Of a stretch of 50,859 bases of DNA, positions 23,136-47,253 are shown in pieces. Positions within the stretch are counted from its first letter, which is position 1. Every line of letters begins with the position of its first letter. The DNA lies in the NCBI RefSeq assembly GCF_033962415.1, contig NZ_JAVIKH010000015.1:1-50859 (forward strand), read 5' to 3'. This stretch comes from Candidatus Cetobacterium colombiensis. GTDB taxonomy: Bacteria > Fusobacteriota > Fusobacteriia > Fusobacteriales > Fusobacteriaceae. The position numbers and the translations under genes are program-made. Under the pieces are notes generated by a model. That model made no database searches. It had not been told where the DNA came from and was given only the letters and a program-made list of their open reading frames with translations.

Positions 23136-26100
23136 TTATACTCTCCCACCAATTCCTTTAAACTTCTCTACAAAAGCTGATATTTTCTGGAATACAGTGC
23201 TTTTTTTAGTCAAGTAATTAGGATTAAGAGGACTCATCTTAGGAATGATTTCATTTAGCTCTGTTCCATTATTACTTGCCTGTTCTTTCTTTAAGGATGT
23301 CATTATATATCTTTTAGCTGCATCAGCATTAAGCTTCTCTTCAGCTATCAACTCTTCAGCTTCTTTCACTTGCTCTATTTGAGCAAATGAGAAAAAGGCA
23401 TCTATAATATTTGCTTTATCATCAAATGTATCTAAATCTGTGCTGTTAATAAAGTCAACTATTAGACTTTCTTTTGCACGATTTCCTGTACTTGACCTAA
23501 TTAAACGACGTACATCTCCAATTAATACATCTTTATCCTTTACCTTCTTATGCTTATCAAAAATCAACTCAAGAATATAGTCTAAGTTTATCTCCTGTGA
23601 TTTTAAAAGATCTATTTCAAAAACAACCTCATCCCATTCAAGTGCAGAATCCTCTTCAACTCCACGCTTCTTTTCACGACGTAGCCATTCACGAATATCA
23701 TTGTATGTAGAACGATAATCTTGAACCATTCTCTCTTTAGGCATCTCTATTTTCTGCATAGCAGCGATATCTTCATCACTTACATAATACGTAGCTTTGA
23801 ACTCTTCAACAGCATTTAAATCTTCCATATCTAGAGATTGTAAAGCTTTTAATCTTGTAAACTCATCATAATTTTGTAATATGTTCTCAACTCTTAAATA
23901 TTCACCAAAGAGTTTAGCAAAATCCTTTTTATCTTTTTCAGTAACTATATCATCAACATTAGGAAAACGAGAGTTTAACTCTCTAACTACTTCTATATAG
24001 CCACGACGTGCTGCACCAGTACTAATATCAGTGAATCCTTCCATATACTCTTTGTAACTTTTTTCAAGAACTACATTCTTTGTATTTTTATCACCAAATA
24101 GAGTTATAGCATCTATTGTAGCCTGTTCTAAATCTCTAAAAGTAACTATATTTCCAAAAGTTTTTGTGGAATCATAGATACGATTTGTTCTTGAAAATGC
24201 TTGTATTAATCCATGATAACGTAAATTTTTATCTACAAATAGTGTATTTAGTGTTGGAGCATCAAATCCTGTTAAAAACATTCCAACTACAATCAATAGA
24301 TCTATCTCTTGCTCTCTCACTCTATTAGCTAAATCACGATAATAGTTCTGAAACTCATTACTATCAACACCAAAGTTTGTTTTAAACATTGTATTATAAT
24401 CATTAATAGCAGAGTTCAAGAACTCCTTTGCACTTTGATTCATTGCTGAAGGTTCAAAAGTTTCATCAAGAATCTCTCCTATTGAATTTTGCTCTTCATT
24501 AGCTGCATAAGAGAATATAGTTGCTATCTTTAAAGGCTTTTTACTATCCTTTTGTAGATTCTTCAATGTTTCATAATAAAGTTTTGCTGCATCTACACTA
24601 CTTACAGTAAGCATTGCATTAAATCCTTTTTCAGCATTATATATACGATGAGTTTTAACTTTAAAGTTATTAAGAATATATTGAGAAATCTCTTTGATTC
24701 TTTCAGGATGTAAAAATGCTGCCTTTGCTTCTGCTGAACTTAATTTTTCTTCATCTTGTTCCATTTCAACAGATTTAAACTTAGGACGTACATCATTATA
24801 ATCAACTTTAAATTTAAGAACCTTCTCATCTCTAATTGCATCTGTAATAACATATGAATGTAACTCAGTACCAAATACACTTGCAGTAGTTTCAGAACCT
24901 AAAGCATTTTCAGGAAATATTGGTGTTCCAGTAAATCCAAACTGATAATACTTTTTAAACTTCTTAGCAATATTCTTTTGAGCTTCACCAAATTGTGAAC
25001 GGTGAGCTTCATCAAATATAAATACAACTTGTTGATTATAAAGTGGTAAATTAGCTTCACTCTTAATTAGGTTATTTAATTTTTGGATGGTAGTTACAAT
25101 AATTTTATTGTCATCCTTTTCAACATTTCTTTTAAGACCAGCAGTGTTTTCAGATCCATTAACACTATCTGGTGAAAAACGTTGGTACTCTTTCATTGTC
25201 TGATAATCTAAATCTTTTCTATCCACTACAAAGAATACTTTATCTATAAATTCCAACTCTGTAGCTAAACGAGCAGCCTTAAAACTTGTTAAAGTTTTTC
25301 CCGACCCAGTTGTATGCCAAATATATCCACCAGCATCTATAGTCTTCCATTTTTTAGCTAAATATGAGCTCTTTATCTTCCATAATATTCTTTCTGTTGC
25401 AGCTATTTGATACGGTCTCATAATTAGAAGTATATTATTTGAATCAAAAACGCAGTAATTCAATAGTACATTTAAAAGTGTGTTCTTTTGAAAAAACGTA
25501 GCTGTAAAGTCTTTTAAATCTCTAATAAGAGTATTGTCAGACTTAGCCCAGTTCATTGTAAAATCAAAACTGTTCTTATCTCTTTTAGTAGTGTTAGCAA
25601 AATATCTTGTATCTGTACCATTTGAAATTACACAAATCTGAAGGTATTTAAATAAAGAGTTATCAGAATTAAAACTCTCTTTGCTATATCTATTGATTTG
25701 ATTAAATGCTTCACGAATAGCAATTCCACGCTTTTTAAGTTCCACTTGAATTAAAGGTAATCCATTAACTAAAATTGTTACATCATAACGATTACTACTA
25801 GTTCCTGTTTGTTTAAACTGTGAAATAACCTGTAACTTATTTCTACTAATATTCTTTCTATCTAGTAGATAGATATTTTGAATATGTCCATCATCAAAGG
25901 TAAAATCATAGATATAGTCATCATGAATTTTACGAGTTTTATCTATGTAGTTATCACTTGGTTTATCTAAGTACTCTTCACAAAATCTTCTCCATTCAGA
26001 ATCTAAAAATTTAACACTGTTAAGAGCTTCTAATTGTACCCTAATGTTTTTTAACATCTCTTTTGTATTAATAAGCTTTGGTAAATATTCATAACCTTGA

Positions 26101-26234
26101 TTTTGTAAGTCCTGTAAAAGCTCCTCTTCCAATTGAGCTTCTGTTTGATAGCTTACCCCTTGTTCATCTATTTTGTTATATCTATCTAAAACTATAAAGT
26201 TATTAGTTTCTGCAATTGATTTATAGTCAGCCAT
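23136..26234 (-). CDS. hsdR: Type I restriction enzyme, R subunit
   Basis: A 1032-aa protein of normal HsdR length. The N-terminal nuclease shows Asp151 (YDVTILVNG) and the ExK pair at Glu165-Lys167 (VELKK). SF2 translocase motifs follow: Walker A TTGSGKT (308-314), DEAH (408-411), FGFTGTPIF (motif III region), then [20 protein letters not shown] and [11 protein letters not shown] (motifs V and VI). A helical C-terminus binds the methylase core. GAGGGG precedes the ATG. It starts 28 bp after the hepT stop, so hsdR may be co-transcribed with the toxin-antitoxin pair instead of with hsdM and hsdS, which lie 2.2 kb upstream beyond a replicon. Confidence 0.96.
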
Positions 26235-26262
26235 AAGTTTCCCCTCTTGTTTTCAGATTTGT

Positions 26263-26631
26263 TTAATTTTTTTCTAGCTCTCTTATCTTTTTTATATAAT
26301 CTAATAGCTCATCCATTTCATCCACAGAAATTTCATAGATCATTTGAATACTAGTTCCCCAATATTCATGTATTAATCTATTTCTAACTCCTTTTATTCC
26401 TTCCCAATAACTTTTATTATCGTAAGTTGTAGTTAAAATATCTTTATCTAACTTTTGGATTTGAGTAATAGCTTCTCCTATTTTTTCTAATTGTCTTTCT
26501 ATATATCCAACACTTTTTTTATCTAAAGCAAAATCGTTAAAGGATTTATTTGTCATCTCTTCTTGAATGTATCCAATAAACTCTTCAATATCATAAGTGA
26601 ACTGTATTATATTTCTTTTTACCTTAGACAT
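26263..26631 (-). CDS. hepT: HepT-like (DUF86) HEPN toxin
   Basis: A 122-aa all-helical HEPN protein. The ribonuclease-type motif Rx4H is present as RNRLIHEYWG near residue 90, and IGEAITQIQKLD is typical of DUF86. The ATG at 26631 is chosen, overlapping the partner gene's stop by eight bases; a GTG three codons earlier is possible. It pairs with the nucleotidyltransferase gene just upstream. In characterised MntA/HepT systems the antitoxin blocks the toxin by AMPylating it near the RxxxxH site. Confidence 0.88.
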   Translation of the reverse strand: MSKVKRNIIQFTYDIEEFIGYIQEEMTNKSFNDFALDKKSVGYIERQLEKIGEAITQIQKLDKDILTTTYDNKSYWEGIKGVRNRLIHEYWGTSIQMIYEISVDEMDELLDYIKKIRELEKN

Positions 26632-26950
26632 ATATAACACTTCCTAATATCTCTTCTTTAACTTTTTCTTTATAATCTTTTACATCTGGATTTTTAAACT
26701 TATAATCAAAAACACTTTTTTCAATTAAGTCTACTTTTTTTCCAAAAGTATTTTCTAACTCCTCTTGCAAAGCACAAAAATTTCTATACATGCCTTTTTT
26801 AAACTCTATTTTTACAATTATATCTATATCACTGCTATCAGTTTCTTCTTCTCTAGCATAACTTCCAAATAATCCAATTTCTAAAATTGAATATTTTTCT
26901 TTATCTAATGCTTTTAAAACAGATAAAATACTTTCTTTATTAATTTCCAT
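26624..26950 (-). CDS. mntA: MntA-like nucleotidyltransferase antitoxin
   Basis: A 108-aa minimal nucleotidyltransferase. The active-site pattern is LFGSYAREEETDSSDIDIIV (GSY plus two catalytic aspartates in SDIDI). It overlaps hepT and starts 42 bp after the replication gene on the same strand, so the three may share a transcript. It is predicted to inactivate HepT by adding AMP. Intact and of normal size. Confidence 0.88.
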   Translation of the reverse strand: MEINKESILSVLKALDKEKYSILEIGLFGSYAREEETDSSDIDIIVKIEFKKGMYRNFCALQEELENTFGKKVDLIEKSVFDYKFKNPDVKDYKEKVKEEILGSVIYV

Positions 26951-26992
26951 TTTATCACCTCATCTTTAAATATTATAACATGAATATACTTT

Positions 26993-28117
26993 CTATTTAA
27001 TCCTCTTTTCAAGTTCTTTTAGAACTTTCATATCCTCAATTACTGATAGTTCACCAAACAGTATAATTCTTTCTCTTGTTGGAAGTTTGCTGTTTAATAT
27101 TACTAATGATAATCTTTCTTTTTCAATATCAAGCTCACTTTTTTCTAAATCTTCAATTTCTGGTTCTGCTATTCTCACAGGTTCTTTTTTAACTTTTACT
27201 TTTTTAGAGTCTACTATATCTTTAATTTTAGAGTTTAAAATCTTAGAAAAACTTTCTATTTCATAATTATATTTATACAGTTCATTCAGCCCTTTTATAA
27301 TATCTGCTTCATCATACTTTAAAATCAATTTATCCATAGCCTTTTGTGAATAGACACTATCTAGATAAATATTCTTACGAGCTTTTAAAACAGCCTTTAA
27401 GAGCTTCTCAGACATACTATTTTCTTCAACCTCAATAGTATCTTTATCAACTTTGACGAATTTTATTTTATGAACTCTACGACTAATTTTTATCTCTTCA
27501 AAATCATACTCATATTTTTTATCAAATTTATTTAGTTCATCCATAGCCTTCCTTAGAACATGTACTTTAAAAGCTTTGTATTCTCCGTATTTATCAACTG
27601 TTCCTGTAATTTCTCTAATTTCATCTAATTCTAAAATAGGAATATTAATTTTTTCATACTTTTTAAAGAAGTCATAAAATATTAAACTATAAACACATCT
27701 GAACACTCTCTTTTCAAGAAGTTTTATCGTTGTATAATATAAACTATCTTTATTATCTTCTTCTGTTTTTAAAGCTTTATATATTGTTGGAGGAACAGCA
27801 ACAAAAACTCCATCTTCACACTTTCTATATTCTGCTAAAAGATTAAAAGCTCCCCAAAGTTTTCCTTTAGCATCTTTACTTTCAATCCTTATTTTTTGTA
27901 AAGAATCTAAATATAAATATATTTCTTCATAATTTCTATCAATTCCTATTGCTTTTGTTATCTCACCTAAAGACAAAACAATACTATCTGCTTTTTCTTG
28001 TTGTAATCTATGTAAAATATAATCATATGTTAAAAGCCCTTGAGTTGTTAATGGAGCACCTTTTATTTCAATCAGTTGATTTGGTTTAAATAACGTTAAA
28101 TCTTTCAATTTTTTCAA
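26993..28117 (-). CDS. repB: Rep_3 (RepB) family plasmid replication initiator, replicon 1
   Basis: A 374-aa initiator with the tandem winged-helix architecture of the Rep_3 superfamily: LLTYDYILHRLQQEKADSIVLSLGEITKAIG near the start, YSLIFYDFFKKYEKINIPILELDEIREITG near 150, and KVHVLRKAMDELNKFDKKYEYDFEEIKISRRVHKIKF after it. A C-terminal extension of about 140 residues is charged. Start chosen as TTG 28117-28115 because GAGGTGA sits at proper distance; GTG 28126 overlaps that site. Four 21-bp iterons lie directly upstream. It lies inside the restriction locus, between hsdS and the mntA-hepT-hsdR group. Confidence 0.88.
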   Translation of the reverse strand: MKKLKDLTLFKPNQLIEIKGAPLTTQGLLTYDYILHRLQQEKADSIVLSLGEITKAIGIDRNYEEIYLYLDSLQKIRIESKDAKGKLWGAFNLLAEYRKCEDGVFVAVPPTIYKALKTEEDNKDSLYYTTIKLLEKRVFRCVYSLIFYDFFKKYEKINIPILELDEIREITGTVDKYGEYKAFKVHVLRKAMDELNKFDKKYEYDFEEIKISRRVHKIKFVKVDKDTIEVEENSMSEKLLKAVLKARKNIYLDSVYSQKAMDKLILKYDEADIIKGLNELYKYNYEIESFSKILNSKIKDIVDSKKVKVKKEPVRIAEPEIEDLEKSELDIEKERLSLVILNSKLPTRERIILFGELSVIEDMKVLKELEKRIK

Positions 28118-28145
28118 AAAAATCACCTCAAATTATAATAACATT

Positions 28146-28266
28146 AAAGGTATAAAACATCAATATGCTTTATTATACTTATCTTCGTAATCTTTATACC
28201 TTTCTTCGTAATTTTTGCACTTACCTTCGTAATCTTTATACCTTTCTTCGTAATCTTTATACCTTT
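28146..28266. repeat. Origin 1: four tandem 21-bp iterons plus an inverted partial copy
   Basis: Units start at 28183, 28204, 28225 and 28246. Units 1, 3 and 4 are identical (CTTCGTAATCTTTATACC then TTT); unit 2 has changes in its right half. An 11-bp inverted partial copy, AAAGGTATAAA, at 28146-28156 is nearer the rep start and probably serves as the autoregulatory operator. The spacing of exactly two helical turns suits cooperative initiator binding. An AT-rich stretch follows on the far side. Confidence 0.9.
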
Positions 28267-28370
28267 AACTTTTTTTGCCTTTCGATAAGCATTGATTTTA
28301 TTGGGTTCGTAGCGTTTATGTTTTTGCCGTAAATCTTATAAATATTGTAAATATTACAAACAAGAAAAAA

Positions 28371-28389
28371 AGAGGAGAAAATCTCCTCT
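28371..28389 (-). terminator. Terminator after hsdS
   Basis: On the minus strand AGAGGAG / CTCCTCT forms a short stem followed by a T-rich run (TTTTTTTCTTG). It ends the hsdM-fic-hsdS transcript before origin 1. Confidence 0.75.
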
Positions 28390-28400
28390 AAAATCTAAAA

Positions 28401-29582
28401 TTAAACCTCTAACTTTTTAAATGTAAGTAGTTTATCTCTATAATACTCATACTGTTGCTTTCTTGCTTCTATCTCTGCTGGTAATCCCTCTTTAATATCA
28501 TTTACTAGAGTATCAAATCTATCAAGAATATCAACGATACGTTGTTGCTCATCTAAGGGTAAAATAGGAACTAAAATTTTAGATAATTTTGGACCTGTTA
28601 TCGATCCCCTTGTTGTAAAAGCTGAATATTTAATAATAGTTTTTCTAACTTTATTAGTTGAAAAATAATATGCTGAAAATTTAGGCAATAATAAATCAGT
28701 TATAGGCCTCGCTCTTATTGAAAATCCATTAAATACACAATTAGGAATATTTTCAATTAAAGCACTAGACATTCCTATATCTTCTTTTGTTTCTGACGTT
28801 CTAGTAAAAAAAACATCTCCTTTTCTAGCGCTGTAATTTTCAATCTCACTAGGATTTACATTTACTAATCCAGAAATTTTTTCATTTGTTAACCATCTAT
28901 TTTTATAAACATCAGTAAAATTAATAAACGGTTGTCCATGTCCAAAAGCACTTTTCTCTTTATTTAAACCATTTTTAAACTCAAAAAGTTCACCAACTGA
29001 TAAATATTGAATATTCCAATCTTTAAATTCAAAAAGTGAATTATGATAATATTCATACTGCTGCTTTCTCATTGTAAGCTCTGCTGTAAGCTCTGCTGTA
29101 AGCTCTGTAAATGTATCTAAAATACGCACAATCTCCTCTTGTACTACTAATGGAGGTAGGGGGATTTGAAGTTTGTATATTTCGTTAGATTTTAAAGCTG
29201 GAATCCCTGCTCCATGCTGACATTCCATTAATTTATTTTGCATACTTTTAACAAAATGGAAAACATAATTATTATTAAGAAAATTATAATCTGGCTGTAA
29301 ATAATAGCAATGTGCATTCGCCCAAAATTTAGTTTTTATAAATTGAACAAACCCAGCAGAAGCTCCTCCTTGGCTAATAATTATTGTATTAGCTTCTACA
29401 TTGTAATTATTTGTAAATCCTGAATAACTAGTTCCACCGTTGTAAGCAGGATAATCTCCTTCTTCTAGTAAATTTTCTTTATTTAACTGTTTTCCTTTTG
29501 ATATCTTACAATACAATCCTAAAGAAACATACTCCACCCCATTAGGACATAGCTCATTAATTAATTGCTCTAACTTACTCAT
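28401..29582 (-). CDS. hsdS: Type I restriction-modification specificity subunit, EcoR124-like
   Basis: A 393-aa protein with two target-recognition domains (about 1-150 and 195-345), each followed by a conserved coiled-coil segment: RKQQYEYYHNSLFEF after the first, RKQQYEYYRDKLLTF at the end. Between the first domain and its helix is LDTFTELTAELTAELTMRKQQ, the short repeat known from EcoR124-type HsdS, where repeat number sets the spacer length of the target. The ATG at 29582 with GAGGAGG is chosen over an upstream in-frame start. It follows fic by one base. The recognition sequence cannot be read from the protein. Confidence 0.94.
   Translation of the reverse strand: MSKLEQLINELCPNGVEYVSLGLYCKISKGKQLNKENLLEEGDYPAYNGGTSYSGFTNNYNVEANTIIISQGGASAGFVQFIKTKFWANAHCYYLQPDYNFLNNNYVFHFVKSMQNKLMECQHGAGIPALKSNEIYKLQIPLPPLVVQEEIVRILDTFTELTAELTAELTMRKQQYEYYHNSLFEFKDWNIQYLSVGELFEFKNGLNKEKSAFGHGQPFINFTDVYKNRWLTNEKISGLVNVNPSEIENYSARKGDVFFTRTSETKEDIGMSSALIENIPNCVFNGFSIRARPITDLLLPKFSAYYFSTNKVRKTIIKYSAFTTRGSITGPKLSKILVPILPLDEQQRIVDILDRFDTLVNDIKEGLPAEIEARKQQYEYYRDKLLTFKKLEV
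29077..29114. repeat. 12-bp tandem repeat encoding the TAEL spacer of HsdS
   Basis: The plus strand shows GTAAGCTCTGCT repeated two full times plus a partial copy, encoding TELTAELTAELT. A gain or loss of one 12-bp unit stays in frame and lengthens or shortens the helix between recognition domains. Confidence 0.85.
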
Positions 29583-29583
29583 C

Positions 29584-30189
29584 TTAGACCTCCTCTGTGT
29601 TGTATTCACTATAACCTTCATAGTAGTAACTTACATCAATACCTTTCATAAATAGATTACGGTCATTGATTTCAATAGTAAGAGCCTGTTTTAAAAGATG
29701 TTTAATTTCAATATCTTTAACTACACTTCTCTCCATAGCTGATAGATATTCATCTTTATCAACTAGATTCCAATCAATTACTACCTTGATATTTTCTTTT
29801 AATATAAGGTCAAGCCATATACGAGTTGATCTCCCATTTCCTTCACGAAAAGGGTGAGCAATATTCATCTCAACATATTTCTCAATAATCTCATCAAATG
29901 TATTTTGTGGCATCTTATCTATATATTCTAAAGAGGGTTTAAGATACATTAGTGGTGCAAAACGGAAATTTCCTTTAGCTATATTTACCTCTCTAACCTT
30001 TCCAGCAAACTCATACATATCTTCAAATAAGTATCTATGTATATATTGAAGCCCTTCAAATGTTCCTACCTTAACTTTATTTATATCTCCTGAATCAAAT
30101 AGTTGCTTAGCTTTTTGTTTACTAATTTTCTCTTCCACCTTTGAAAGTTCCACTTGATTAGTAATATTAAGCTTATTATCTAAAATCAT
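29584..30189 (-). CDS. fic: Fic-domain AMP-transferase, class III
   Basis: A 201-aa protein with the catalytic motif [10 protein letters not shown] (His112), preceded by the flap region ([14 protein letters not shown]). Near the C-terminus SYYYEG (Ser187-Glu191-Gly192) matches the inhibitory motif [S/T]xxxE[G/N] of class III Fic proteins such as NmFic, so activity is probably self-limited. It lies three bases after hsdM and one base before hsdS, so all three are translated together. Fic genes inside type I loci are recurrent; the target is unknown. Confidence 0.92.
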
Positions 30190-30192
30190 ACT

Positions 30193-31743
30193 TTATTCCA
30201 CCTCAATCTCTGCAACTATCTTATCTATTTCAATACGAAGTCTATCTATATTGCTCACTGTTGCTTTTATCTTGGCGTTTAGTTCCTTTATATCAATAAC
30301 CTCTCTTGTATCTTCAGCTTCTACATAAGTATTAACAGAAAGATTGTAACTCTCTTCAGCTATCTTTTCATTATCTACAGATTTTGAAACATACTCAATA
30401 TCCTCTTTAGTATCAAATATTCTTAGTATCTCCTCTATATGTTCCTCTGTTAAGATGTTGTTATTAGTTTCTTTCTTGAAGAAGTTTTCTCCACTAGCAT
30501 CTATAAATTGAGTTGTTGAATCCTTTTTAGACTTAGATAAAATTAAAATATTAACAGCTATTGAAGTTCCAAAGAAAAGATTAGGTGCTAACGATATAAC
30601 AGTTTCAACAAAGTTATTATCAATTAAGTACTTTCTAATCTTTTGCTCTGCTCCACCACGATAGAATATTCCAGGGAAACAAACTATAGCAGCACGACCT
30701 TTACTTGAAAGATAATTTAAACAGTGAAGTACAAAAGCAAAGTCAGCTTTAGATTTTGGTGCAAGTACTCCAGCTGGTGCAAAACGTTCATCATTAATAA
30801 GAGTTGGGTCATCACTACCAATCCAATTAACTGAATACGGAGGATTTGATACAATGGCATCAAAAGGCTTCTCATCTCCAAAGTGAGGATCTAAAAGTGT
30901 ATTTCCTAATGCAATATCAAATTTATCGTAGTTTACATTGTGTAAAAACATATTCATACGAGCAAGGTTATATGTTGTATGATTAATCTCTTGTCCATAG
31001 AAACCATCTTCAATAACATGATCATCAAACTGCTTCTTTGCTTGTAGTAGTAGTGAACCTGATCCAGCAGCAGGGTCATAAATCTTATTAATCGTTTCTT
31101 GTTTATGTGTTGCTAATTTTGCGATAAGCTTTGATACACTTTGAGGTGTAAAAAACTCTCCACCAGATTTACCAGCATTGGCAGCATAGTTAGAAATTAA
31201 AAACTCATAAGCATCACCAAATAGATCTATATGGTTATCTTCAAACTCTCCAAAATTAAGACCTTCAACACCTTTAATAACAGTAGCTAAACGACTATTC
31301 TTGTCTTTAACTGTATTTCCTAATCTATTGCTTGTTGTATCAAAATCAGCAAATAACCCTTTAATATCTGATTCTGATGGATAACCATTAGCAGAACCTT
31401 CAATAGCTGAAAATATTGCAGCTAAATCAGTATTTAAACTTTCATTAGTGTTTGCTCCTTTAGCAATGTTAACGAATAGTTGACTTGGATATATAAAATA
31501 TCCCTTTGTTTTTATTGCATCATCTTTGATTTCATCTGTTATAACATCATCACTTAAATCTGCATATTTAAAACTATCATCTCCAGCTTCAATATAGTTA
31601 GAGAAGTTTTCACTTATAAATCTATAAAATAACGTTCCTAAAACATATTGCTTAAAATCCCATCCATCTATTGAACCACGAACATCATTTGCTATCTTCC
31701 AAATTTGCGATTGTAATTCAGCTCTTTGTGCTATACTTGACAT
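30193..31743 (-). CDS. hsdM: Type I DNA methyltransferase subunit
   Basis: A 516-aa protein. The SAM-binding motif [13 protein letters not shown] is at about 223-235 and the catalytic NPPY of an N6-adenine methylase at 300-303. [18 protein letters not shown] and [17 protein letters not shown] are typical of HsdM. The start is ATG 31743, because GGAGG precedes it and lies inside a five-codon upstream extension. It is the first gene of hsdM-fic-hsdS. HsdM and HsdS would protect the host site recognised by the complex with HsdR. Confidence 0.96.
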
Positions 31744-31892
31744 TTTTAATTCCTCCATTTATATACAATAATTTTATACTCTACTAATGGTATAAAGTTA
31801 CTCAATTTAATTATAATTTATGCTTTATTATATCATAAAGCCTGTATAAATAACACCTTCAAGAGATGTTAAACTACTATTTAAATAGTGGT

Positions 31893-32810
31893 TTATTTCT
31901 TCAATACTGATTTTAAAGTCTTTATATAAATGCTTGGTGATTTTTTCTTTTGCTCATTTAGGATTTCATATCCAATACCTTGATTTTGAAGTATCTCTCT
32001 AGCTTCCATCTCTTCTTCTAAAGTTAGATCTAATTTTTTCTTTTTAGGTACGTCTTCATAGATAGCAAAATAAATCTCTATCTTTTCGATTTTTCTACGC
32101 CCTTTTCCTTTCAGTTCTTCAGGAAACTTATATATTTTTTTCTTCTCTAATTCAGCTTTAGCTTTTTTAGTAATAAACTTATTAACATCTCCAATTGTAT
32201 AAGCTTTTGGAACTTCTAAAACATCTCTAAATTGTTCTATCTCCATAACAAAATAACCTGTGCTTTCAAACTGCTTCAATAACATATACAACCTTTTAGC
32301 ATATTTTCCACTTATACCCTTTAATTCTGCATCTTCAAGCAGTAGTATCTCTTGTTTTTTATGTTTTAGTTCATTGTCCCAATAATCTAACTCTTTAACT
32401 GTTAGTGGCTCTTTTTTCTTAGCTTTATCTATTATGTGAATATCGTGTTTGTAGAAAAGAAATGGAATAAACAGTGATGGTATCTCTATCTTCAAAGTTT
32501 CTTCATCTATCTCTTGGGTTACAAATATACTTCCAGATATCCCATAGCCTTTTTCTTTATCAATCTCATATCTTTTAGAAACTGTTAATCCACGAATAAA
32601 CTCTTGAAATTCTTCTTTGGTGTATGGTCTAGTTGTAGATGCTTCCCATATTTCACGCTTTTTTATTGTTATAACTCTCTCTTTTATTTCTAGTCCCTTA
32701 TTCCATTTGTTAAACTTTTTCAATAGCCACCCAAAAGCATTTACAAAAATCTCTTTTTCAAAATATATTGGTAGTCTATTTAATTGCTTATTAAATCCTA
32801 TTTTCCCCAT
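31893..32810 (-). CDS. Rep_3-like plasmid replication initiator, replicon 2
   Basis: A 305-aa protein preceded by GAGGTGA. The winged-helix pattern of Rep_3 initiators is present (KLKIEIPSLFIPFLFYK-type core near 115, ISGKYAKRLYMLLKQFESTGYFVMEIEQFRDVLEVPKAYTIGDVNKFITKKAKAEL at about 170-225, then KIEKIEIYFAIYED). It is not closely similar to the initiator at 26993. Four iterons and an operator-like promoter lie upstream. The gene appears intact, so replicon 2 may still work. Confidence 0.85.
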   Translation of the reverse strand: MGKIGFNKQLNRLPIYFEKEIFVNAFGWLLKKFNKWNKGLEIKERVITIKKREIWEASTTRPYTKEEFQEFIRGLTVSKRYEIDKEKGYGISGSIFVTQEIDEETLKIEIPSLFIPFLFYKHDIHIIDKAKKKEPLTVKELDYWDNELKHKKQEILLLEDAELKGISGKYAKRLYMLLKQFESTGYFVMEIEQFRDVLEVPKAYTIGDVNKFITKKAKAELEKKKIYKFPEELKGKGRRKIEKIEIYFAIYEDVPKKKKLDLTLEEEMEAREILQNQGIGYEILNEQKKKSPSIYIKTLKSVLKK

Positions 32811-32880: not shown

Positions 32881-32888
32881 AAATGTCA

Positions 32889-32974
32889 CTACAATTTACT
32901 CCTTATGTTTGCTACAATTTACCCCTTATCCTTACTACAATTTACTCCTTATGTCACTACAATTTACTCCTTAT
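32889..32974. repeat. Origin 2: four 18-bp iterons at 22-23 bp spacing
   Basis: CTACAATTTACTCCTTAT occurs at 32889, 32912 (one change, ACCCC), 32935 and 32957. They sit directly upstream of the replicon 2 promoter. No gene is present from 32811 to 33111; beyond the iterons the DNA holds only TAGTCTTTAA duplications near 33040. Confidence 0.9.
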
Positions 32975-34297: not shown

Positions 34298-34696
34298 CTA
34301 ATCTAAAATTTTAATAATTTTATTTTTAACAAAATTTAATATTTCTAATGCTTCAGTTTTTGCTTCTTCCAATATATCATGTGTAGGAACTAAACCATAT
34401 CCAGTATCCATATATCTAAATATTGTAGCATATGGTGTTAATTTTTCACAAGCATCATATAATACTTCAAAATCTAAATCTATATTTATGCAATTATCTA
34501 AAATACTTGTTAAATCATGAGTTTTAGGAACTTTATTTTTATGAAAAATTAAAAAAGCTTTTAATGCCTTTTCACCAGCCTGTTGATAATGATATATTGC
34601 TGATTCTTCAAGTTCATTTTCATATAAAATTTTTCCTGATTGAAAATCTCGCTCAGCTTTAAACAGCATTATTTCATAATCTTTAGTTGGCTTCAT
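34298..34696 (-). CDS. HEPN-domain protein, COG2250 type
   Basis: A 132-aa helical protein: LFKAERDFQSGKILYENELEESAIYHYQQAGEKALKAFLIF, then THDLTSIL and ATIFRYMDTGY. This is the HEPN type usually paired with small nucleotidyltransferases. The ribonuclease RxxxxxH motif is not obvious, so the biochemical role may differ from HepT. It overlaps the upstream nucleotidyltransferase gene by 14 bases. It belongs to the second HEPN/MNT pair of the plasmid. Confidence 0.85.
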   Translation of the reverse strand: MKPTKDYEIMLFKAERDFQSGKILYENELEESAIYHYQQAGEKALKAFLIFHKNKVPKTHDLTSILDNCINIDLDFEVLYDACEKLTPYATIFRYMDTGYGLVPTHDILEEAKTEALEILNFVKNKIIKILD

Positions 34697-35000
34697 ATAA
34701 TAAGTACCCCTTATTCAAAATTTCATTTTCTATCAAATGATTTTTTTTAGCATTATCTAAAAATTCTAATTCATTCTCTACAATTAAATCTTTTGGAAAT
34801 CCAATTCCTCTTAAAGCTTTTAATCCTTTTCTCATTTCTAATATTTTATTATCACATTTTTCTAAAATAACCATTATATCTAAATCGCTATCTTCATTAG
34901 GGATGCCCCAAGCATATGATCCAAATATATATATTTTTTTTGGATGAAATTCTTTAACTAATCTTTCTTTAACTTGCTCTATTTGCTTTAAATTAATCAT
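34683..35000 (-). CDS. Minimal nucleotidyltransferase, partner of HEPN protein
   Basis: A 105-aa MNT-domain protein with active-site pattern IYIFGSYAWGIPNEDSDLDIMVIL (GSY and SDLDI aspartates). GGAGG precedes the ATG. It is different in sequence from the MntA-like protein at 26624 (KKIYIFGS versus ILEIGLFGS), so the two pairs are separate acquisitions. The pair probably forms a toxin-antitoxin unit with the downstream HEPN gene and starts 54 bp after the parB-like stop. Confidence 0.87.
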   Translation of the reverse strand: MINLKQIEQVKERLVKEFHPKKIYIFGSYAWGIPNEDSDLDIMVILEKCDNKILEMRKGLKALRGIGFPKDLIVENELEFLDNAKKNHLIENEILNKGYLLYEAN

Positions 35001-36573: not shown

Positions 36574-38337
36574 CTACAAAAAATTACTTTTTATTATTTC
36601 TTTTAATTTTTCTATAGTTAGATTTCTACGAATAAAATAATCTGCACATTCCAATATAATTTTTCTTTTAATAATCTCAATATTATCATACTCTATTTTC
36701 ATTAAGTCTTGATATAATTCTACATATTCATCTATACACTCTTTTAACTTTTGTCTATCATTTATCATAGTATCTTCTATTCTGGGTGATTCATTTTCAC
36801 TTTTAATTTCTTTTTTACTCTCTAAAATTTGAGGATATCTTTCTAAATAATCACAGATTAATTTTTTCCTACTTCCCATAAAAGCTAGTTGTTGTATTTT
36901 AGTTTCCATTCCACACAATTCAATGTATTCTCGATAAACATATCCTTCTATACCGTTTTGAATATTTATAGGTAGTTTTTCAAATTTTTGATATAAATTA
37001 TCAATTATTTTTTCTTTTTTTAATCCCTCTAATGAGATATTTTCATTTTTAGATTCTTTTTTAGGAATGTTTACCTCTAAAACTTCTCCATCAAACCAAT
37101 TATTTTCTAATGATTTTAAAAAATAAGCTCTTGGACTCTTTAAATTTTTTTGTTTTTTTAAATATTGAACTGCTAGTAAAACCTTTTCTATTCCATAATG
37201 ATCAATAGAATCTTTTATTGTCTTAGGCATAGTTTTTAATTTTTTAGCAGCATTTGGAAGTTTATTTATAATTTCATTAATTACTTCTAACGTTATTTCT
37301 TCTTTTTTTTCTAATAAATTTTCAATAACGGGTTCATGCTCCATATCTGATATTGCTAAAGAGGTTGTCATTCTTTTAAAATCGTTTAAATCTGTATAAA
37401 ATCTATCTTGCTTTAATATTAAATTAGTTTCTGAGAAAAATATCTCAACTTCTGACTTTTCCCAAGTTGTATCTTTTATAAAATTAAAATTTTTAATTAA
37501 ATTTTTTTCTTTTAATTCTTCTAAACTTTTACCAATAGTCTGTATAGTTCTAGCAATATTTTTTTTATCATATTTTAATGGAATTCTCTTTATAAGAAAT
37601 AATATATCTACTTTTAAATATAAATCATTGAATCTTAATTTTTCAATAAGCATATATATGGTTCTAGAAGTCCCATTAGTAATGGTTAAAAGAGTGTCTG
37701 AATCGTAAACTAGATAACCTTTTGAAACTAGATTATCATAAAAATAATCTGAAACTGCAATTTCATAAGCCTCTTTTATTCTCTTATCAGAGATTTTTTC
37801 TTTTAAAGATTTATTTTTTTCATCTTCTAATTTTAATATTTCTAAGCTCATTATTGTTGTATGAACCTCTTTTGTTAATAAACTTTTTTCTTTATTTGAA
37901 TATAAAGTATTTTTAAACTGATAATTCGTCGAAGCTAATCTAATTAAAGCATCTTTAACTCTTTTTACATAATCTTTTGTATTCATATTTAATTCTTTTT
38001 TTAATTCATTTGCTGTTACAACAAATCTTCTTTGCATTCCTTTTTTTTTCATAAGCTTCATTAAAATTATAAATATTTTTTCTTCTAATTCACCTGGAAT
38101 ATAATTTCCATTCATTGGAACCACGTTGATATAAATATCTCTTTTCTGATTAAAAAAATACTTCACAATTTGATTGACTTTTCGCTTAGGATTTTTAGAA
38201 AACAGAGGATATTGTATGGCATTCATATCTACTCTTATTAGAGATTTATTTTTTAATAATTCTTCATCTAGATAGATATTTTCTTCAACTATTTCTGTTT
38301 CTGGCATATCAACAACTTCATCTTCTAACCAATTCAT
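36574..38337 (-). CDS. repA: Large plasmid replication initiator, replicon 3
   Basis: A 587-aa protein. The middle contains winged-helix-like initiator features: YIPGELEEKIFIILMKLMKKKGMQRRFVVTANELKKELNM at about 78-117, ALIRLASTNYQFKNTLY near 135, then TNGTSRTIYMLIEKLRFN and LIKRIPLKYDKKNIARTIQTIGKSLEEL. The C-terminus (350-587) is helical, perhaps helicase-loading. Assignment rests on this pattern, on location upstream of parA, and on six iterons plus inverted partial copies in front of the gene. GAGGAG and GGAAG precede the ATG. It resembles initiators of large fusobacterial and clostridial plasmids more than the two Rep_3 proteins here. Confidence 0.78.
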   Translation of the reverse strand: MNWLEDEVVDMPETEIVEENIYLDEELLKNKSLIRVDMNAIQYPLFSKNPKRKVNQIVKYFFNQKRDIYINVVPMNGNYIPGELEEKIFIILMKLMKKKGMQRRFVVTANELKKELNMNTKDYVKRVKDALIRLASTNYQFKNTLYSNKEKSLLTKEVHTTIMSLEILKLEDEKNKSLKEKISDKRIKEAYEIAVSDYFYDNLVSKGYLVYDSDTLLTITNGTSRTIYMLIEKLRFNDLYLKVDILFLIKRIPLKYDKKNIARTIQTIGKSLEELKEKNLIKNFNFIKDTTWEKSEVEIFFSETNLILKQDRFYTDLNDFKRMTTSLAISDMEHEPVIENLLEKKEEITLEVINEIINKLPNAAKKLKTMPKTIKDSIDHYGIEKVLLAVQYLKKQKNLKSPRAYFLKSLENNWFDGEVLEVNIPKKESKNENISLEGLKKEKIIDNLYQKFEKLPINIQNGIEGYVYREYIELCGMETKIQQLAFMGSRKKLICDYLERYPQILESKKEIKSENESPRIEDTMINDRQKLKECIDEYVELYQDLMKIEYDNIEIIKRKIILECADYFIRRNLTIEKLKEIIKSNFL

Positions 38338-38468: not shown

Positions 38469-38600
38469 ACCCTCTATAACGAGGAACCCCCCAATAATGA
38501 GGAGAGATACCCCCTAGTAATGAGGATGAATACCCCTCAATGACGAGGAAAAAACCCCTCAGTAATGAGGAGAGATACCCCCCAGTAATGAGGAGAGGTA
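38469..38600. repeat. Origin 3: six iterons of about 22-23 bp
   Basis: Units with the form ACCCCYCARTAATGAGGA begin at 38469, 38486, 38509, 38532, 38554 and 38577. Spacing is 22-23 bp except the first pair (17 bp). These GC-rich units contrast with the AT-rich surroundings. The 380-bp gap between repA and the relaxase gene holds only these repeats, the inverted copies and AT-rich DNA (38610-38717) with AACAATATAA duplications that could be the melting region. Confidence 0.9.
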
Positions 38601-38717
38601 CTTTTTGCATTTAGCCTAATGTAATCAAGGTCTAATCAAGTGTTTTTTTTCATTTTTTTTGTTACCTAACAATATAAACAATATAACAATATAAAACAAC
38701 TATAAACAATGTAAATT

Positions 38718-43092: not shown

Positions 43093-43121
43093 TTGACAGG
43101 CCCGGGGCTCTAATATATCTT
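43093..43121 (+). promoter_or_regulatory. Promoter of the helicase operon with a GC-rich spacer
   Basis: TTGACA (43093-43098), a 17-bp spacer and TATCTT (43116-43121) fit a sigma70 promoter. The spacer begins GGCCCGGGGCTC, a GC-only, nearly palindromic block (CCCGGG core) in otherwise AT-rich DNA, well placed for a repressor. Confidence 0.75.
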
Positions 43122-43152
43122 GTTATTTATCACTGAAAGGAGAGTAGATATC

Positions 43153-46100
43153 ATGAAAATATTAATAAATGATTTTGTGAATAGAGTTGGAATTTCTAAA
43201 GATATAATCAAAAGACTAAAAGGATTAAAAACATTATCTCATGAATTAAAGGTGAATAATTCTATTCAAAATTTAAAAAATGGGAAGCTAGAAAATCCCT
43301 TGCTATTAGATGATAAAAGATATTTATACTTGGAAGATTTAAAAAAATTAATTGTGTATAGTTTAATAAGAACTAGAAAATCAATTCCAAAAGATGTAAT
43401 TTTAACTCAAGATATATTGAAGAAAGATGATATAGATAATCTTATAGCAAAATTGATTTTATCAGAAAATAAAAGATTTAAGTTGATGAAAGATAAAATT
43501 ATAAATGGATTAGATATAGAGGAGTGTTTAAAGGTATTAGAAGAACTTTATCCTAAAAAGATGGATGAGATTTATACCATCGATGATATGTTAGACTTTG
43601 AAACTATTGCAAATAAATATATTGAGATAAAAAGTACAGAAAGTAATAAAATTCAAAAGAGTGAGAAAAAACAAGAGTTAGAATCTACAGATAATATTTT
43701 AGAAGATATTTTTAAGAAATATTCGGAAGAACCATATGGTTATTTTCCGTTACAACACCCAACTGGAAATGGTAAAACTTTTCATCTAGAAAATTTTATT
43801 GTAAAAAATATAGTTGATGATTTTAAAAATTTAAAACACAATAAAATAATAATAATTACTAACAATAAAATTAATATAAATGAAATTTATAGAGGAATTG
43901 TTAGTAAATTAAAAGCACAGACTCAAGAAAGTAAAAAAGAGTGTATTTTTCAAATGAAATCAGTTGGTGATATATTAAATGACGCCAGGTTTTTAGATGA
44001 AATCTTAAATGATTTAGATAAAGATTTAAAATTTTATAATCTTTTTCAGTTCAAAGAAAGCTTTATAAGGAAATTTAAAGAAAAAATTAGGCTTTTAAAA
44101 GAACATGTAAATAAAAAATCACCATTAAATTCTAATGATTTTTTAAAAGAATATATGAGCGAAATAAAAAAATGTATGTTTAAATTTTTTAATTTAAAAG
44201 AAAAAAATGAAATTTATTATGAGGATATGAAGCTTCCCAATTTTTTATATAAACTATTTCCAATGATTATAGAGGAGAATCTTCAAAAGAGAATTCTTAT
44301 TATGACAACGGACAAATTTTTATATGGGTATGTTGGACGTAAAGGAACAGAGTATTTTTATGAAAATTTTAGAGATAATTTAATCTTTATAGATGAAATA
44401 GATTCAGCTAAAGACAAATTTTTAGATTTCATAAAAAATAGAAGAACTTTAAATATCCCAAATATAATAGATGTATTCAATGATAGATATAATTTATTTT
44501 CAGACATTCAAAATAATCAGTTGAATACTTTAATAGAAAAGCTATCTAAGTTTGAAAGTATGAGAGATGATTTAGATAAGCAAAATATAGAGAATAGAAA
44601 AATAAAGTTTCGGGAGAAAGTAAATTTCTTTATGGATAGAGGTAAATTTTTAAGAGAGAAGTATTTTACAACAGCAAAATATTTTGAACTTGAAAATGAA
44701 ACTAGAATAGATCTTTTTGAAAATGAAAATCACTATGTTCAGTCGGATAGAAAAAAACTTTATATTGATATAACTAATGATAGTTGTTTAATAACAGAAA
44801 GAAAAACTTCTTTAGAATTAACAGCGTTAATTGATGATCTTTTTAACTATAGTTACAATAAATTTTATAAATTGTTAAATGAAATTTACGACTATCATAT
44901 GTTATTAAAAGAAGATAATGAAATTGAAAAAGAGATAATAACTCATTTTGTATATAATTTAGAATCACAAAAAGAGATGTTGAATGAGTATAAAAACTAC
45001 TATATTCAAAAGATAAAAATATTACAAGATAATAAAAGTTTTATGGATAAGGAATATAGTTATATACATATATCAGAAATAAATCCTGATTATAAAACAA
45101 ATAGAAAAGTTAGAATAAAATGTCAGTATATGTATATAACTCCAGAGGAATTTTTATATAGTATTTGTAAAAATAACTTTGTTTTTGGAATATCAGCAAC
45201 TGCAAATATAGAAACATGTATAGGTAATTTTGATATAAAATATCTAAAAGATAGATTAAAAAACAACTATTTTCAAATGACTAGTTTAGAGAAAAAAGTT
45301 TTAAAAAAATCTCTTTTAAAAATAAATAGTTTTGAAAAAAATATTGAGCGAGAATTATCAGTTTTTAGAGATAATTCTATACTTTTAACAGATCAAAGCA
45401 AAGGATTTCAGAATATTAATACTTTTTTAAAAGATCCAAAGAAATATAGATTACAAAAGCTTATAAAAAATATATTTAATGGAGCTTTAGAAAGTGTAGA
45501 TGAGCAATTAGATGAGAATAAAAGAGATTTTCAAAAAAATTGTATTAGTTATGCTGTAACAGTTTTTTTAAATTTTTTATTAGATGAAGATACAAGTAGT
45601 TTATTATTTTTAAGTAATAGGCTTACTCATAAAGACATTTTAAAAAAGACAGCATTTGAACTAGGAAAGCATTTAAAGAAAAAAGTTTATTTTAATGCTT
45701 ATAGATCCAAAGAATTAGATGATATTTTAAAAAATAGTAATGAAAAAGATAATGAATTGATGGAAAATTTAAAAGATTATAAAACAAAAACTATAATATT
45801 CACAACTTATCAAAGTGCTGGAGTCGGAGTAAATATAAAGCATACTTATAGTAAAAGACTTGATAGTAAACTAATTAAATTAAACCAGGATATACAAAAA
45901 GAAACAGGAATCTCTTTAAAATATAAAGATATTGATGAGATAGCACTAGAGAATAAAACTAACATTGTTAGCTTAGAAGATCTGTTCAACGAAAAGATAG
46001 TTTTATTATACTATACCAACTTATTATTAAGATGTAAGGCTTTAACAAAGAGAGAGAGATCTTTACTTTTAAATAGATTTAATGATATTGATTTTAAGAA

Positions 46101-47253
46101 AGTTTATAAAAAAAGATATGATTATACTGAAAATGTGATTGGAAAAATTATTCAAGGAATAGGAAGGTGTAATAGAACCAAGGTTCGATGTAAAAAAAGA
46201 AATATATATTTAGATAATGATTGTTTTGAAGTTATTAAAAGTTTTAAAGATGCTGATAGATTATTTATTGACGATTTTAACTTTTTATTAACAGAGGCGT
46301 TTAAAGAAAAGGGAGATTTAAAAAATAACTTTCAACAAGAGTTATTGAGAAAAGACCGAGAAGTAAGAAGATATTTTGAAAATACATATTTAGATGAGAT
46401 ATCTATCAATAATCAGCTTATAAGAAATACAGAAGATGAAGATAAGAGATTAGATTATATAAATAGTTTTATGAATTTTTACAAAAAGTATGAAAGATTT
46501 AGAATGTATGTTTTAAAAAATCCTACAAGAGGTCTTGAGGAAATTGAAAGTGTAGCTTATTTTTCAGCTATGGAAAAAATTGATAATTATACCGTACTTG
46601 GAAGTGCTGGAGATAAAATTGATAATATACTATTTAATACAACAAATGGAAATATCTCTAAAAAAGATAGTCGTTTAGATGAACTAAAATCTATTCCGCT
46701 TTTAAAAGATATTTTAGAGAATAAAGTTGGTTTGTTTGAAAAAAATGATCAGATAGTTTTACCATATATTTATCAAGCCATATTTAAAGGAACTTTAGGT
46801 GAAGTTTTAATAAAAGAGATTTTTAGAATTTATGATATTAAACTCAAAAATATAGATGAGGTTTTATCTATAGGTATGTTAGAGATATTTGATGATATAA
46901 GTGAAAGTGGTATGTATATAGATTATAAAAATTATAATTTAGAAAAACTTAATAGTAGAGAGTTTTTCAACGATATAATCAGAGAGAAAGTTATTCAAAA
47001 GAGAAGATACATAAGCTCTGATAAAAAATTATTTATTGTAAACCTTATAAGTAATAAATCAAAGGTATTAAATAGAGATATAGCTTTTTATAAAATTCAA
47101 AATATTTACAACGAAAGTTACAAAACCTGTAAATATGAAGAGAGTGAAGTTGTTCTTATTTCAGGAGTTTTAAGGTATAGAGAAAATAGTGAAGAATTAG
47201 AAATAAATGAAGTTCTAGTGAATGATTTAAAAAAAATGTTGGAGAGAAAGTAA
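43153..47253 (+). CDS. SF2 (DExD/H-type) helicase, first gene of an uncharacterised operon
   Basis: A 1366-aa protein starting at ATG 43153 behind AAAGGAGAG. The SF2 motifs are all present: Walker A HPTGNGKT (202-209), motif II DEID (414-417) in FIDEIDS, motif III SAT (681-683), motif V TTYQSAGVGVN (884-894) and motif VI QGIGRCNRT (1001-1009). Long inserts separate motifs II and III (about 265 residues) and III and V. The first 190 residues look helical with a possible DNA-binding start (NRVGISKDIIKRLKG). The last 350 residues contain no motif I know. The stop overlaps the next start (TAATG). Outside the motor core I cannot place it in a named defence or repair family. Confidence 0.85.
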   Translation: MKILINDFVNRVGISKDIIKRLKGLKTLSHELKVNNSIQNLKNGKLENPLLLDDKRYLYLEDLKKLIVYSLIRTRKSIPKDVILTQDILKKDDIDNLIAKLILSENKRFKLMKDKIINGLDIEECLKVLEELYPKKMDEIYTIDDMLDFETIANKYIEIKSTESNKIQKSEKKQELESTDNILEDIFKKYSEEPYGYFPLQHPTGNGKTFHLENFIVKNIVDDFKNLKHNKIIIITNNKININEIYRGIVSKLKAQTQESKKECIFQMKSVGDILNDARFLDEILNDLDKDLKFYNLFQFKESFIRKFKEKIRLLKEHVNKKSPLNSNDFLKEYMSEIKKCMFKFFNLKEKNEIYYEDMKLPNFLYKLFPMIIEENLQKRILIMTTDKFLYGYVGRKGTEYFYENFRDNLIFIDEIDSAKDKFLDFIKNRRTLNIPNIIDVFNDRYNLFSDIQNNQLNTLIEKLSKFESMRDDLDKQNIENRKIKFREKVNFFMDRGKFLREKYFTTAKYFELENETRIDLFENENHYVQSDRKKLYIDITNDSCLITERKTSLELTALIDDLFNYSYNKFYKLLNEIYDYHMLLKEDNEIEKEIITHFVYNLESQKEMLNEYKNYYIQKIKILQDNKSFMDKEYSYIHISEINPDYKTNRKVRIKCQYMYITPEEFLYSICKNNFVFGISATANIETCIGNFDIKYLKDRLKNNYFQMTSLEKKVLKKSLLKINSFEKNIERELSVFRDNSILLTDQSKGFQNINTFLKDPKKYRLQKLIKNIFNGALESVDEQLDENKRDFQKNCISYAVTVFLNFLLDEDTSSLLFLSNRLTHKDILKKTAFELGKHLKKKVYFNAYRSKELDDILKNSNEKDNELMENLKDYKTKTIIFTTYQSAGVGVNIKHTYSKRLDSKLIKLNQDIQKETGISLKYKDIDEIALENKTNIVSLEDLFNEKIVLLYYTNLLLRCKALTKRERSLLLNRFNDIDFKKVYKKRYDYTENVIGKIIQGIGRCNRTKVRCKKRNIYLDNDCFEVIKSFKDADRLFIDDFNFLLTEAFKEKGDLKNNFQQELLRKDREVRRYFENTYLDEISINNQLIRNTEDEDKRLDYINSFMNFYKKYERFRMYVLKNPTRGLEEIESVAYFSAMEKIDNYTVLGSAGDKIDNILFNTTNGNISKKDSRLDELKSIPLLKDILENKVGLFEKNDQIVLPYIYQAIFKGTLGEVLIKEIFRIYDIKLKNIDEVLSIGMLEIFDDISESGMYIDYKNYNLEKLNSREFFNDIIREKVIQKRRYISSDKKLFIVNLISNKSKVLNRDIAFYKIQNIYNESYKTCKYEESEVVLISGVLRYRENSEELEINEVLVNDLKKMLERK

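What the first reader, a model, noticed from the sequence alone, without database searches (positions are those of the whole stretch)
29077..29114. TAEL-type spacer repeat in HsdS that could switch DNA target spacing
The 12-bp tandem unit encodes TELTAELTAELT between the recognition domains. In EcoR124-type enzymes, two versus three such repeats change the length of the non-specific spacer in the target by one base. Slippage here would keep the frame and yield a new specificity.
Basis: partly seen in the sequence, partly recalled or inferred. Interest (0 to 1): 0.52.

Follow-up and report, generated by a model that had tools for sequence, protein, structure and literature searches.

The report
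Spacer-length repeat in a plasmid restriction enzyme
A bacterial plasmid carries a DNA-cutting defence system whose target-reading protein contains a short repeated stretch that acts as a ruler, as in a well-studied E. coli enzyme; gaining or losing one repeat should shift the target by one base, and related E. coli plasmids already show exactly that change.

Summary
The repeat is real: 36 bases (29073-29108, minus strand) encode TELTAELTAELT in hsdS of a complete plasmid-borne type I restriction-modification system, most likely from Cetobacterium. HsdM and HsdR score 924 and 1720 bits against EcoR124 chains; HsdS aligns without a gap to EcoR124I across the repeat. That places it in the two-TAEL class, for which a 6-base target gap is predicted. 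A predicted structure puts the array inside one unbroken 38-residue helix joining the two target domains. In 68 related hsdS genes the linker is always 4, 8, 12 or 16 residues, and units within a gene are far more alike in DNA than units of different genes: repeated unit gain and loss. In E. coli plasmids, hsd loci with four variable sites in 6039 bases carry two or three units on both backgrounds, so the proposed change happens in close relatives. No variant of this very allele was found; its nearest relative has the same unit number and a swapped N-terminal target domain. Repeat-number change of specificity in type IC enzymes is textbook. New member of a known kind; low interest. One oddity: half of the genes encode Glu-Leu of the last unit by the same hexamer, GAGCTT.

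The parts
28404..29582 (-). hsdS, specificity subunit of a type IC restriction-modification system (stop codon at 28401-28403)
   Evidence: Pfam Methylase_S, 2 stretches, 2.2e-47; aligns over 393 residues with the EcoR124 S chain 7bst_A, 2.1e-37
29073..29108 (-). 12-bp tandem array encoding TELTAELTAELT (two full TAEL units plus the first TEL)
   Evidence: TRF; sequence and codons
29037..29150 (-). central helix (residues 145-182) that carries the array
   Evidence: AlphaFold2 model, mean pLDDT 91.4, helix H145-182 without a break
29151..29582 (-). N-terminal target-recognition domain (boundaries approximate)
   Evidence: Pfam, model; differs from C. somerae (54 of 152 aligned residues identical before the helix)
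28557..29036 (-). C-terminal target-recognition domain (boundaries approximate)
   Evidence: Pfam, model; from the conserved ILDTF motif in the helix onward 207 of 240 residues identical to C. somerae
28428..28556 (-). C-terminal conserved helices (residues 343-361 and 366-385), presumed partner of the central helix
   Evidence: model
29584..30189 (-). fic, protein adenylyltransferase of the NmFic class, between hsdM and hsdS
   Evidence: Pfam PF02661; NCBIfam NF046029 above its cut-off; HPFREGNGR motif
30193..31758 (-). hsdM, methyltransferase subunit
   Evidence: 924 bits to the EcoR124 M chain 7bst_D; TIGR00497 above its cut-off
23136..26234 (-). hsdR, restriction and translocation subunit
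   Evidence: 1720 bits to EcoR124 HsdR 2w00_A; Pfam EcoR124_C

Best explanation
This is the specificity subunit of a plasmid-borne type IC restriction-modification system, and the array is the ruler segment of the helix that holds its two target domains apart. Shown here: the array is a perfect 12-bp repeat, in frame, inside one continuous predicted helix; its length equals the two-TAEL form of EcoR124I; linkers in relatives change only in four-residue steps; near-identical E. coli hsd loci differ by exactly one unit. Inferred from EcoR124: two half-sites separated by about 6 bases (7 between the methylated adenines), and one added unit moving the domains by one base pair, so that a slip or unequal crossover makes a new specificity for both cutting and methylation at once. 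Also inferred: this is an occasional change on evolutionary or epidemiological time, not a fast programmed switch in this strain.
For: HsdS aligns with the EcoR124 S chain 7bst_A without a gap through the array (TELTAELTAELTMRKQQY versus TALTAELTAELNMRKKQY). HsdM 924 bits and HsdR 1720 bits to the EcoR124 chains; 407/514 and 772/1031 identical residues to an E. coli plasmid type I system of the same kind. Model: mean pLDDT 91.4, helix 145-182 spans the array at 159-170; fold match to 7bst_A, TM 0.75/0.77. Linker lengths of 68 hsdS genes: 4, 8, 12, 16 residues in 1, 3, 33, 31; the search pattern allowed any length from 4 to 30. Synonymous codons at equal unit positions agree in 792 of 856 comparisons within genes and 33396 of 69265 between genes; adjacent units with the same amino acids have identical DNA in 57 of 61 pairs, against 932 of 4161 between genes. 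Window and C. somerae: the two full units of each array are alike, yet differ from the other species at the same base in both units. E. coli: L124 and L125 hsdS have no mismatch and one 12-base gap at the array. Of 60 evenly spaced rows out of 1396 records, 14 cover all of that hsdS: 8 have the 3-unit length and 6 the 2-unit length. Eight such loci (4 of each length, chosen by me) differ at 4 sites in 6039 bases outside the array, and both lengths occur on both backgrounds.
Against: No variant of the window's own allele was found: the nearest relative, C. somerae, has the same number of units. No methylome, no reads, no protein. Model pTM is 0.67, so the relative placement of the two domains is not firmly predicted. 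A plasmid replication gene and a toxin-antitoxin-like pair lie between hsdS and hsdR; that hsdR is expressed with hsdM and hsdS is not shown. In the E. coli set, recombination between plasmids instead of a second slip cannot be excluded.
Confidence: 0.88

Rival explanations
1. A fast phase-variable switch: the array slips often within this strain, so that a clonal population holds both specificities (a phasevarion).
For: Unit number changes recurrently in E. coli relatives; in M. pneumoniae hsdS the 12-bp repeat number differs between passages of one strain (passages of PMC4537597).
Against: Only three units (35 perfect bases), a single sequence here, and no sign of mixed lengths; M. pneumoniae arrays reach far more copies (up to 33 in the part of the table shown).
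Confidence: 0.07
2. The main route of specificity change here is exchange of whole target domains, with the conserved central block, array included, serving as the crossover site; the unit number is a by-product.
For: Window versus C. somerae: the part before the helix motif is 54/152 identical, from there on 207/240, while HsdM is 493/516; the central block is nearly identical in DNA. Similar C-terminal domains pair with unlike N-terminal domains in many loci.
Against: Does not explain the E. coli pairs in which only the array differs, nor why linkers move only in four-residue steps. The two routes are compatible.
Confidence: 0.3
3. The array is only a coiled-coil filler with no effect on target spacing.
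For: No functional data for this protein.
Against: It aligns residue for residue with the segment whose unit number sets the gap in EcoR124; L165, E168, L169 and R172 in and next to it are invariant in an alignment of 32 sequences.
Confidence: 0.04

Closest known systems
EcoR124I / EcoR124II (type IC, plasmid R124)
   Same: HsdM and HsdR closely related; same position and length of the TAEL array as the two-repeat form; plasmid-borne; fold match
   Different: Target domains differ; first unit TEL instead of TAL; a fic gene between hsdM and hsdS; hsdR separated by a replication gene and a nucleotidyltransferase/HepT-like pair
hsd locus on the Cetobacterium somerae plasmid NZ_CP092521.1
   Same: HsdM 493/516, HsdR 938/1032, Fic 172/201 identical; same order M-fic-S and same unit number
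   Different: N-terminal target domain replaced; units are TTEL not TAEL; an AAA ATPase gene lies between hsdS and hsdR
12-bp AELS/TELS repeats of Mycoplasma pneumoniae hsdS genes (PMC4537597)
   Same: In-frame 12-bp repeat in the first dimerisation helix of HsdS, variable in number (passages read)
   Different: Ten hsdS genes, no working hsdR according to that paper, far longer arrays
NgoAV LEAT repeats of Neisseria gonorrhoeae (PMC6789123)
   Same: Four-residue repeats of HsdS whose number goes with the spacer in the methylated motif (passage read)
   Different: Effect combined with a truncating frameshift; other repeat sequence

Membership tests
Type IC restriction-modification (EcoR124 family) | HsdM and HsdR closely related to EcoR124 | tested here: met
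   924 bits (M) and 1720 bits (R) to EcoR124 chains, against 70 bits for EcoKI M
Type IC restriction-modification (EcoR124 family) | HsdS with two target domains and tetra-residue repeats in the central conserved helix | tested here: met
   Pfam two stretches, array, helix
Type IC restriction-modification (EcoR124 family) | Central and C-terminal conserved regions of HsdS alike | tested here: met
   MRKQQYEYYHNSLFE and ARKQQYEYYRDKLLT
Type IC restriction-modification (EcoR124 family) | Bipartite m6A target whose gap follows the unit number | not testable with these tools
   no methylome or assay
Type IC restriction-modification (EcoR124 family) | Contiguous hsdM-hsdS-hsdR genes (usual in the E. 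coli relatives, e.g.; not part of the published definition, which rests on complementation, antibodies and sequence) | tested here: inconclusive
   Order kept, but fic lies between M and S, and a Rep_3 gene plus a nucleotidyltransferase/HepT-like pair between S and R
Phase-variable type I system (phasevarion) | Reversible change of hsdS within a clone | not testable with these tools
   no reads; single sequence. Relatives show 1 to 4 units and 2 or 3 units on near-identical E. coli loci

The most novel reading that the evidence does not exclude
The array is kept by selection on its DNA as well as on its protein: across several phyla (Fusobacteriota, Bacillota, Bacteroidota, Pseudomonadota) type IC hsdS genes use the same hexamer GAGCTT for Glu-Leu of the unit, against their own codon habits. 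This would keep the units identical and ready to slip or to recombine with foreign hsdS genes: a shared specificity-changing module.
Probability: 0.15. Interest if true: 0.45.

Novelty: new member of a known kind. Interest (0 to 1): 0.24.

Why it matters
It extends the EcoR124-type ruler to a fusobacterial plasmid and shows, from public genomes, that one-unit changes recur on otherwise unchanged hsd loci of E. coli plasmids. Since restriction and methylation share HsdS, each such change would make a new barrier to plasmids and phages in one step. The principle itself is long established.

Tried and rejected
Looked for a second hsdS copy in the same genome: one match only. Looked for closer relatives in viral contigs (3 loci; none was found to cover the whole protein at high identity) and phage records (9 records, all below 60% identity). 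Looked for pairs with both target domains alike but different unit number: none; pairs sharing one domain with different unit numbers do exist, for example the C-terminal domain of L054 (2 units) and L056 (4 units), 0.99 identical. Rfam: nothing. End overlap of the contig as a sign of circularity: none.

Rows dropped: of 117 sequences scanned (116 loci and the window), 69 distinct ORFs gave a linker; L088 was dropped as a C-terminal helix read by mistake (68 left). L084 and L085 both counted there; their target domains are identical; L085 was dropped (67 genes). Loci whose linker was not parsed (truncated, interrupted, other sequence, or an unread run as in L083) are not in the counts.

Full report
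What is there. The minus strand of 23136-31758 holds hsdM (30193-31758), fic (29584-30189), hsdS (28404-29582) and hsdR (23136-26234). Between hsdS and hsdR lie a Rep_3-type initiator gene (26993-28126) and a nucleotidyltransferase/HepT-like pair (26263-26950). The window is contig C15 of a 2.8-Mb genome. It carries a ParA-like ATPase, a MobA/MobL relaxase and a Tn3 transposase, so it is most likely a plasmid (inference). A same-genus genome, G006, has its hsdS match at the same coordinates (57750-58973) as the Cetobacterium somerae plasmid NZ_CP092521.1, so the genus is most likely Cetobacterium (inference).

The repeat. The codons ACA GAG CTT, then two times ACA GCA GAG CTT, then ACA, run from 29108 down to 29073. 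The perfect period-12 stretch is 35 bases; codon shuffles of the gene never exceeded 23 in 2000 trials, and synonymous resampling reached 35 in 237 of 200,000. It encodes residues 159-170 of HsdS.

What family. HsdM matches the EcoR124 M chain with 924 bits, HsdR the EcoR124 R chain with 1720 bits, and HsdS the EcoR124 S chain with E = 2.1e-37. Through the array the HsdS alignment has no gap, and EcoR124I in that PDB chain reads TALTAELTAELN, so the window belongs to the two-TAEL length class. The review PMC3874165 (passages read) says that two repeats give a gap of 6 and three repeats a gap of 7 in EcoR124, the extra unit moving the domains by about one base pair; the same table gives 7 bases between methylated adenines for EcoR124I. 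The prediction for the window is therefore a gap of about 6; the half-sites are unknown.

Where the array sits. An AlphaFold2 model from 32 sequences (mean pLDDT 91.4, pTM 0.67) has a helix from residue 145 to 182 without a break, with the array in its middle, and C-terminal helices at 343-361 and 366-385. The model matches 7bst_A with TM-scores of 0.75 and 0.77.

Does the number vary in relatives? In the order, 9 of 96 genomes hold an array of at least three (T/A-type) TEL units as the pattern was written; the control pattern hit none. Two of the nine (G002, G022) give two matches 12 bases apart, that is four units; shorter arrays could not match that pattern. In 68 hsdS genes, the linker between the ILDxF-like motif and the xRKxQY-like motif is 4, 8, 12 or 16 residues (1, 3, 33 and 31 genes), although the pattern allowed any length from 4 to 30. 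The array is homogenised within genes: 792 of 856 synonymous comparisons agree within genes, 33396 of 69265 between genes; 57 of 61 adjacent units with equal amino acids have equal DNA, against 932 of 4161 between genes. The window and C. somerae arrays show the same on a small scale: both full units differ from the other species at the same base. This is what repeated gain and loss of units leaves behind.

Direct evidence of a one-unit change. In E. coli, 1305 of 5426 genomes have a match to one plasmid hsdS, and 320 have a place covering at least 80% of it. Two records, L124 and L125, have hsdS genes with no mismatch and one 12-base gap at the array. Of the 60 evenly spaced rows, 14 cover the gene fully: 8 with three units, 6 with two (by span in the record). 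I fetched eight loci, four of each length. Outside the array, hsdM-hsdS-hsdR is 6039 bases with four variable sites; on one background the unit numbers are 2, 3, 2, 3, on the other 3, 2, 3, 2. At least two changes, or one change and a recombination very near the array, are needed. The paper searches did not bring up this E. coli case, but I read passages of a few papers only and do not claim that it is unpublished.

What speaks against a switch in this strain. There is one sequence, three units and no reads. The nearest relative has the same number of units; what changed is the N-terminal target domain (54 of 152 residues identical before the helix motif, 207 of 240 from there on, while HsdM is 493 of 516). 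So domain exchange is at least as good an account of specificity change in this genus.

An oddity. In 67 genes with Glu-Leu in the last unit, 34 write it GAGCTT; codon use in the rest of the same genes predicts 4.3, and 20,000 simulations gave at most 14. Outside the array only 11 of 145 Glu-Leu pairs are GAGCTT. Leu codons of nearby conserved positions are shared less between genes (0.18-0.21) than those in the array (0.34-0.40). Most E. coli and Klebsiella arrays seen use GAGCTT too. Exchange of array DNA between distant hsdS genes, or selection on the DNA, would both fit; neither is tested, and the genes are not independent samples.

Known or new. Four-residue HsdS repeats that set or are thought to set the target gap are known in E. 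coli, Neisseria (PMC6789123, passage) and Mycoplasma (PMC4537597, passages; PMC8836594, passages). This is a new member of that kind.

Noticed in passing
window 29584-30189: A Fic adenylyltransferase gene of the NmFic class, with intact HPFREGNGR and a C-terminal SYYYEG (resembling the inhibitory motif, recalled), sits between hsdM and hsdS, one base from the hsdS start; same order in C. somerae. A Fic motif lies within 800 bases upstream of hsdS in only 2 of 74 loci checked.
   Followed up: partly
window 26263-28266: A Rep_3-type initiator gene with a 21-bp iteron-like array (28173-28266) and a nucleotidyltransferase/HepT-like pair split hsdS from hsdR; in C. somerae an AAA ATPase gene is there instead.
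   Followed up: no
window 32882-32974 and 38486-38601: Two further iteron-like arrays (periods 23/46 and 23/45) next to genes without Pfam match at 31893-32810 and 36574-38337, so the plasmid may carry three replication modules.
   Followed up: no
window 34298-35000: A second HEPN/nucleotidyltransferase pair on the same contig.
   Followed up: no
67 hsdS arrays, e.g. window 29073-29108: Glu-Leu of the last repeat unit is GAGCTT in 34 of 67 genes from several phyla, 4.3 expected from the genes' own codon use.
   Followed up: partly
L129-L136 (E. coli plasmids): Near-identical hsd loci (4 variable sites in 6039 bases) carry 2 or 3 TAEL units on both backgrounds.
   Followed up: yes
window 43120-49073: Two large ORFs (1377 and 606 aa) without a Pfam match.
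   Followed up: no
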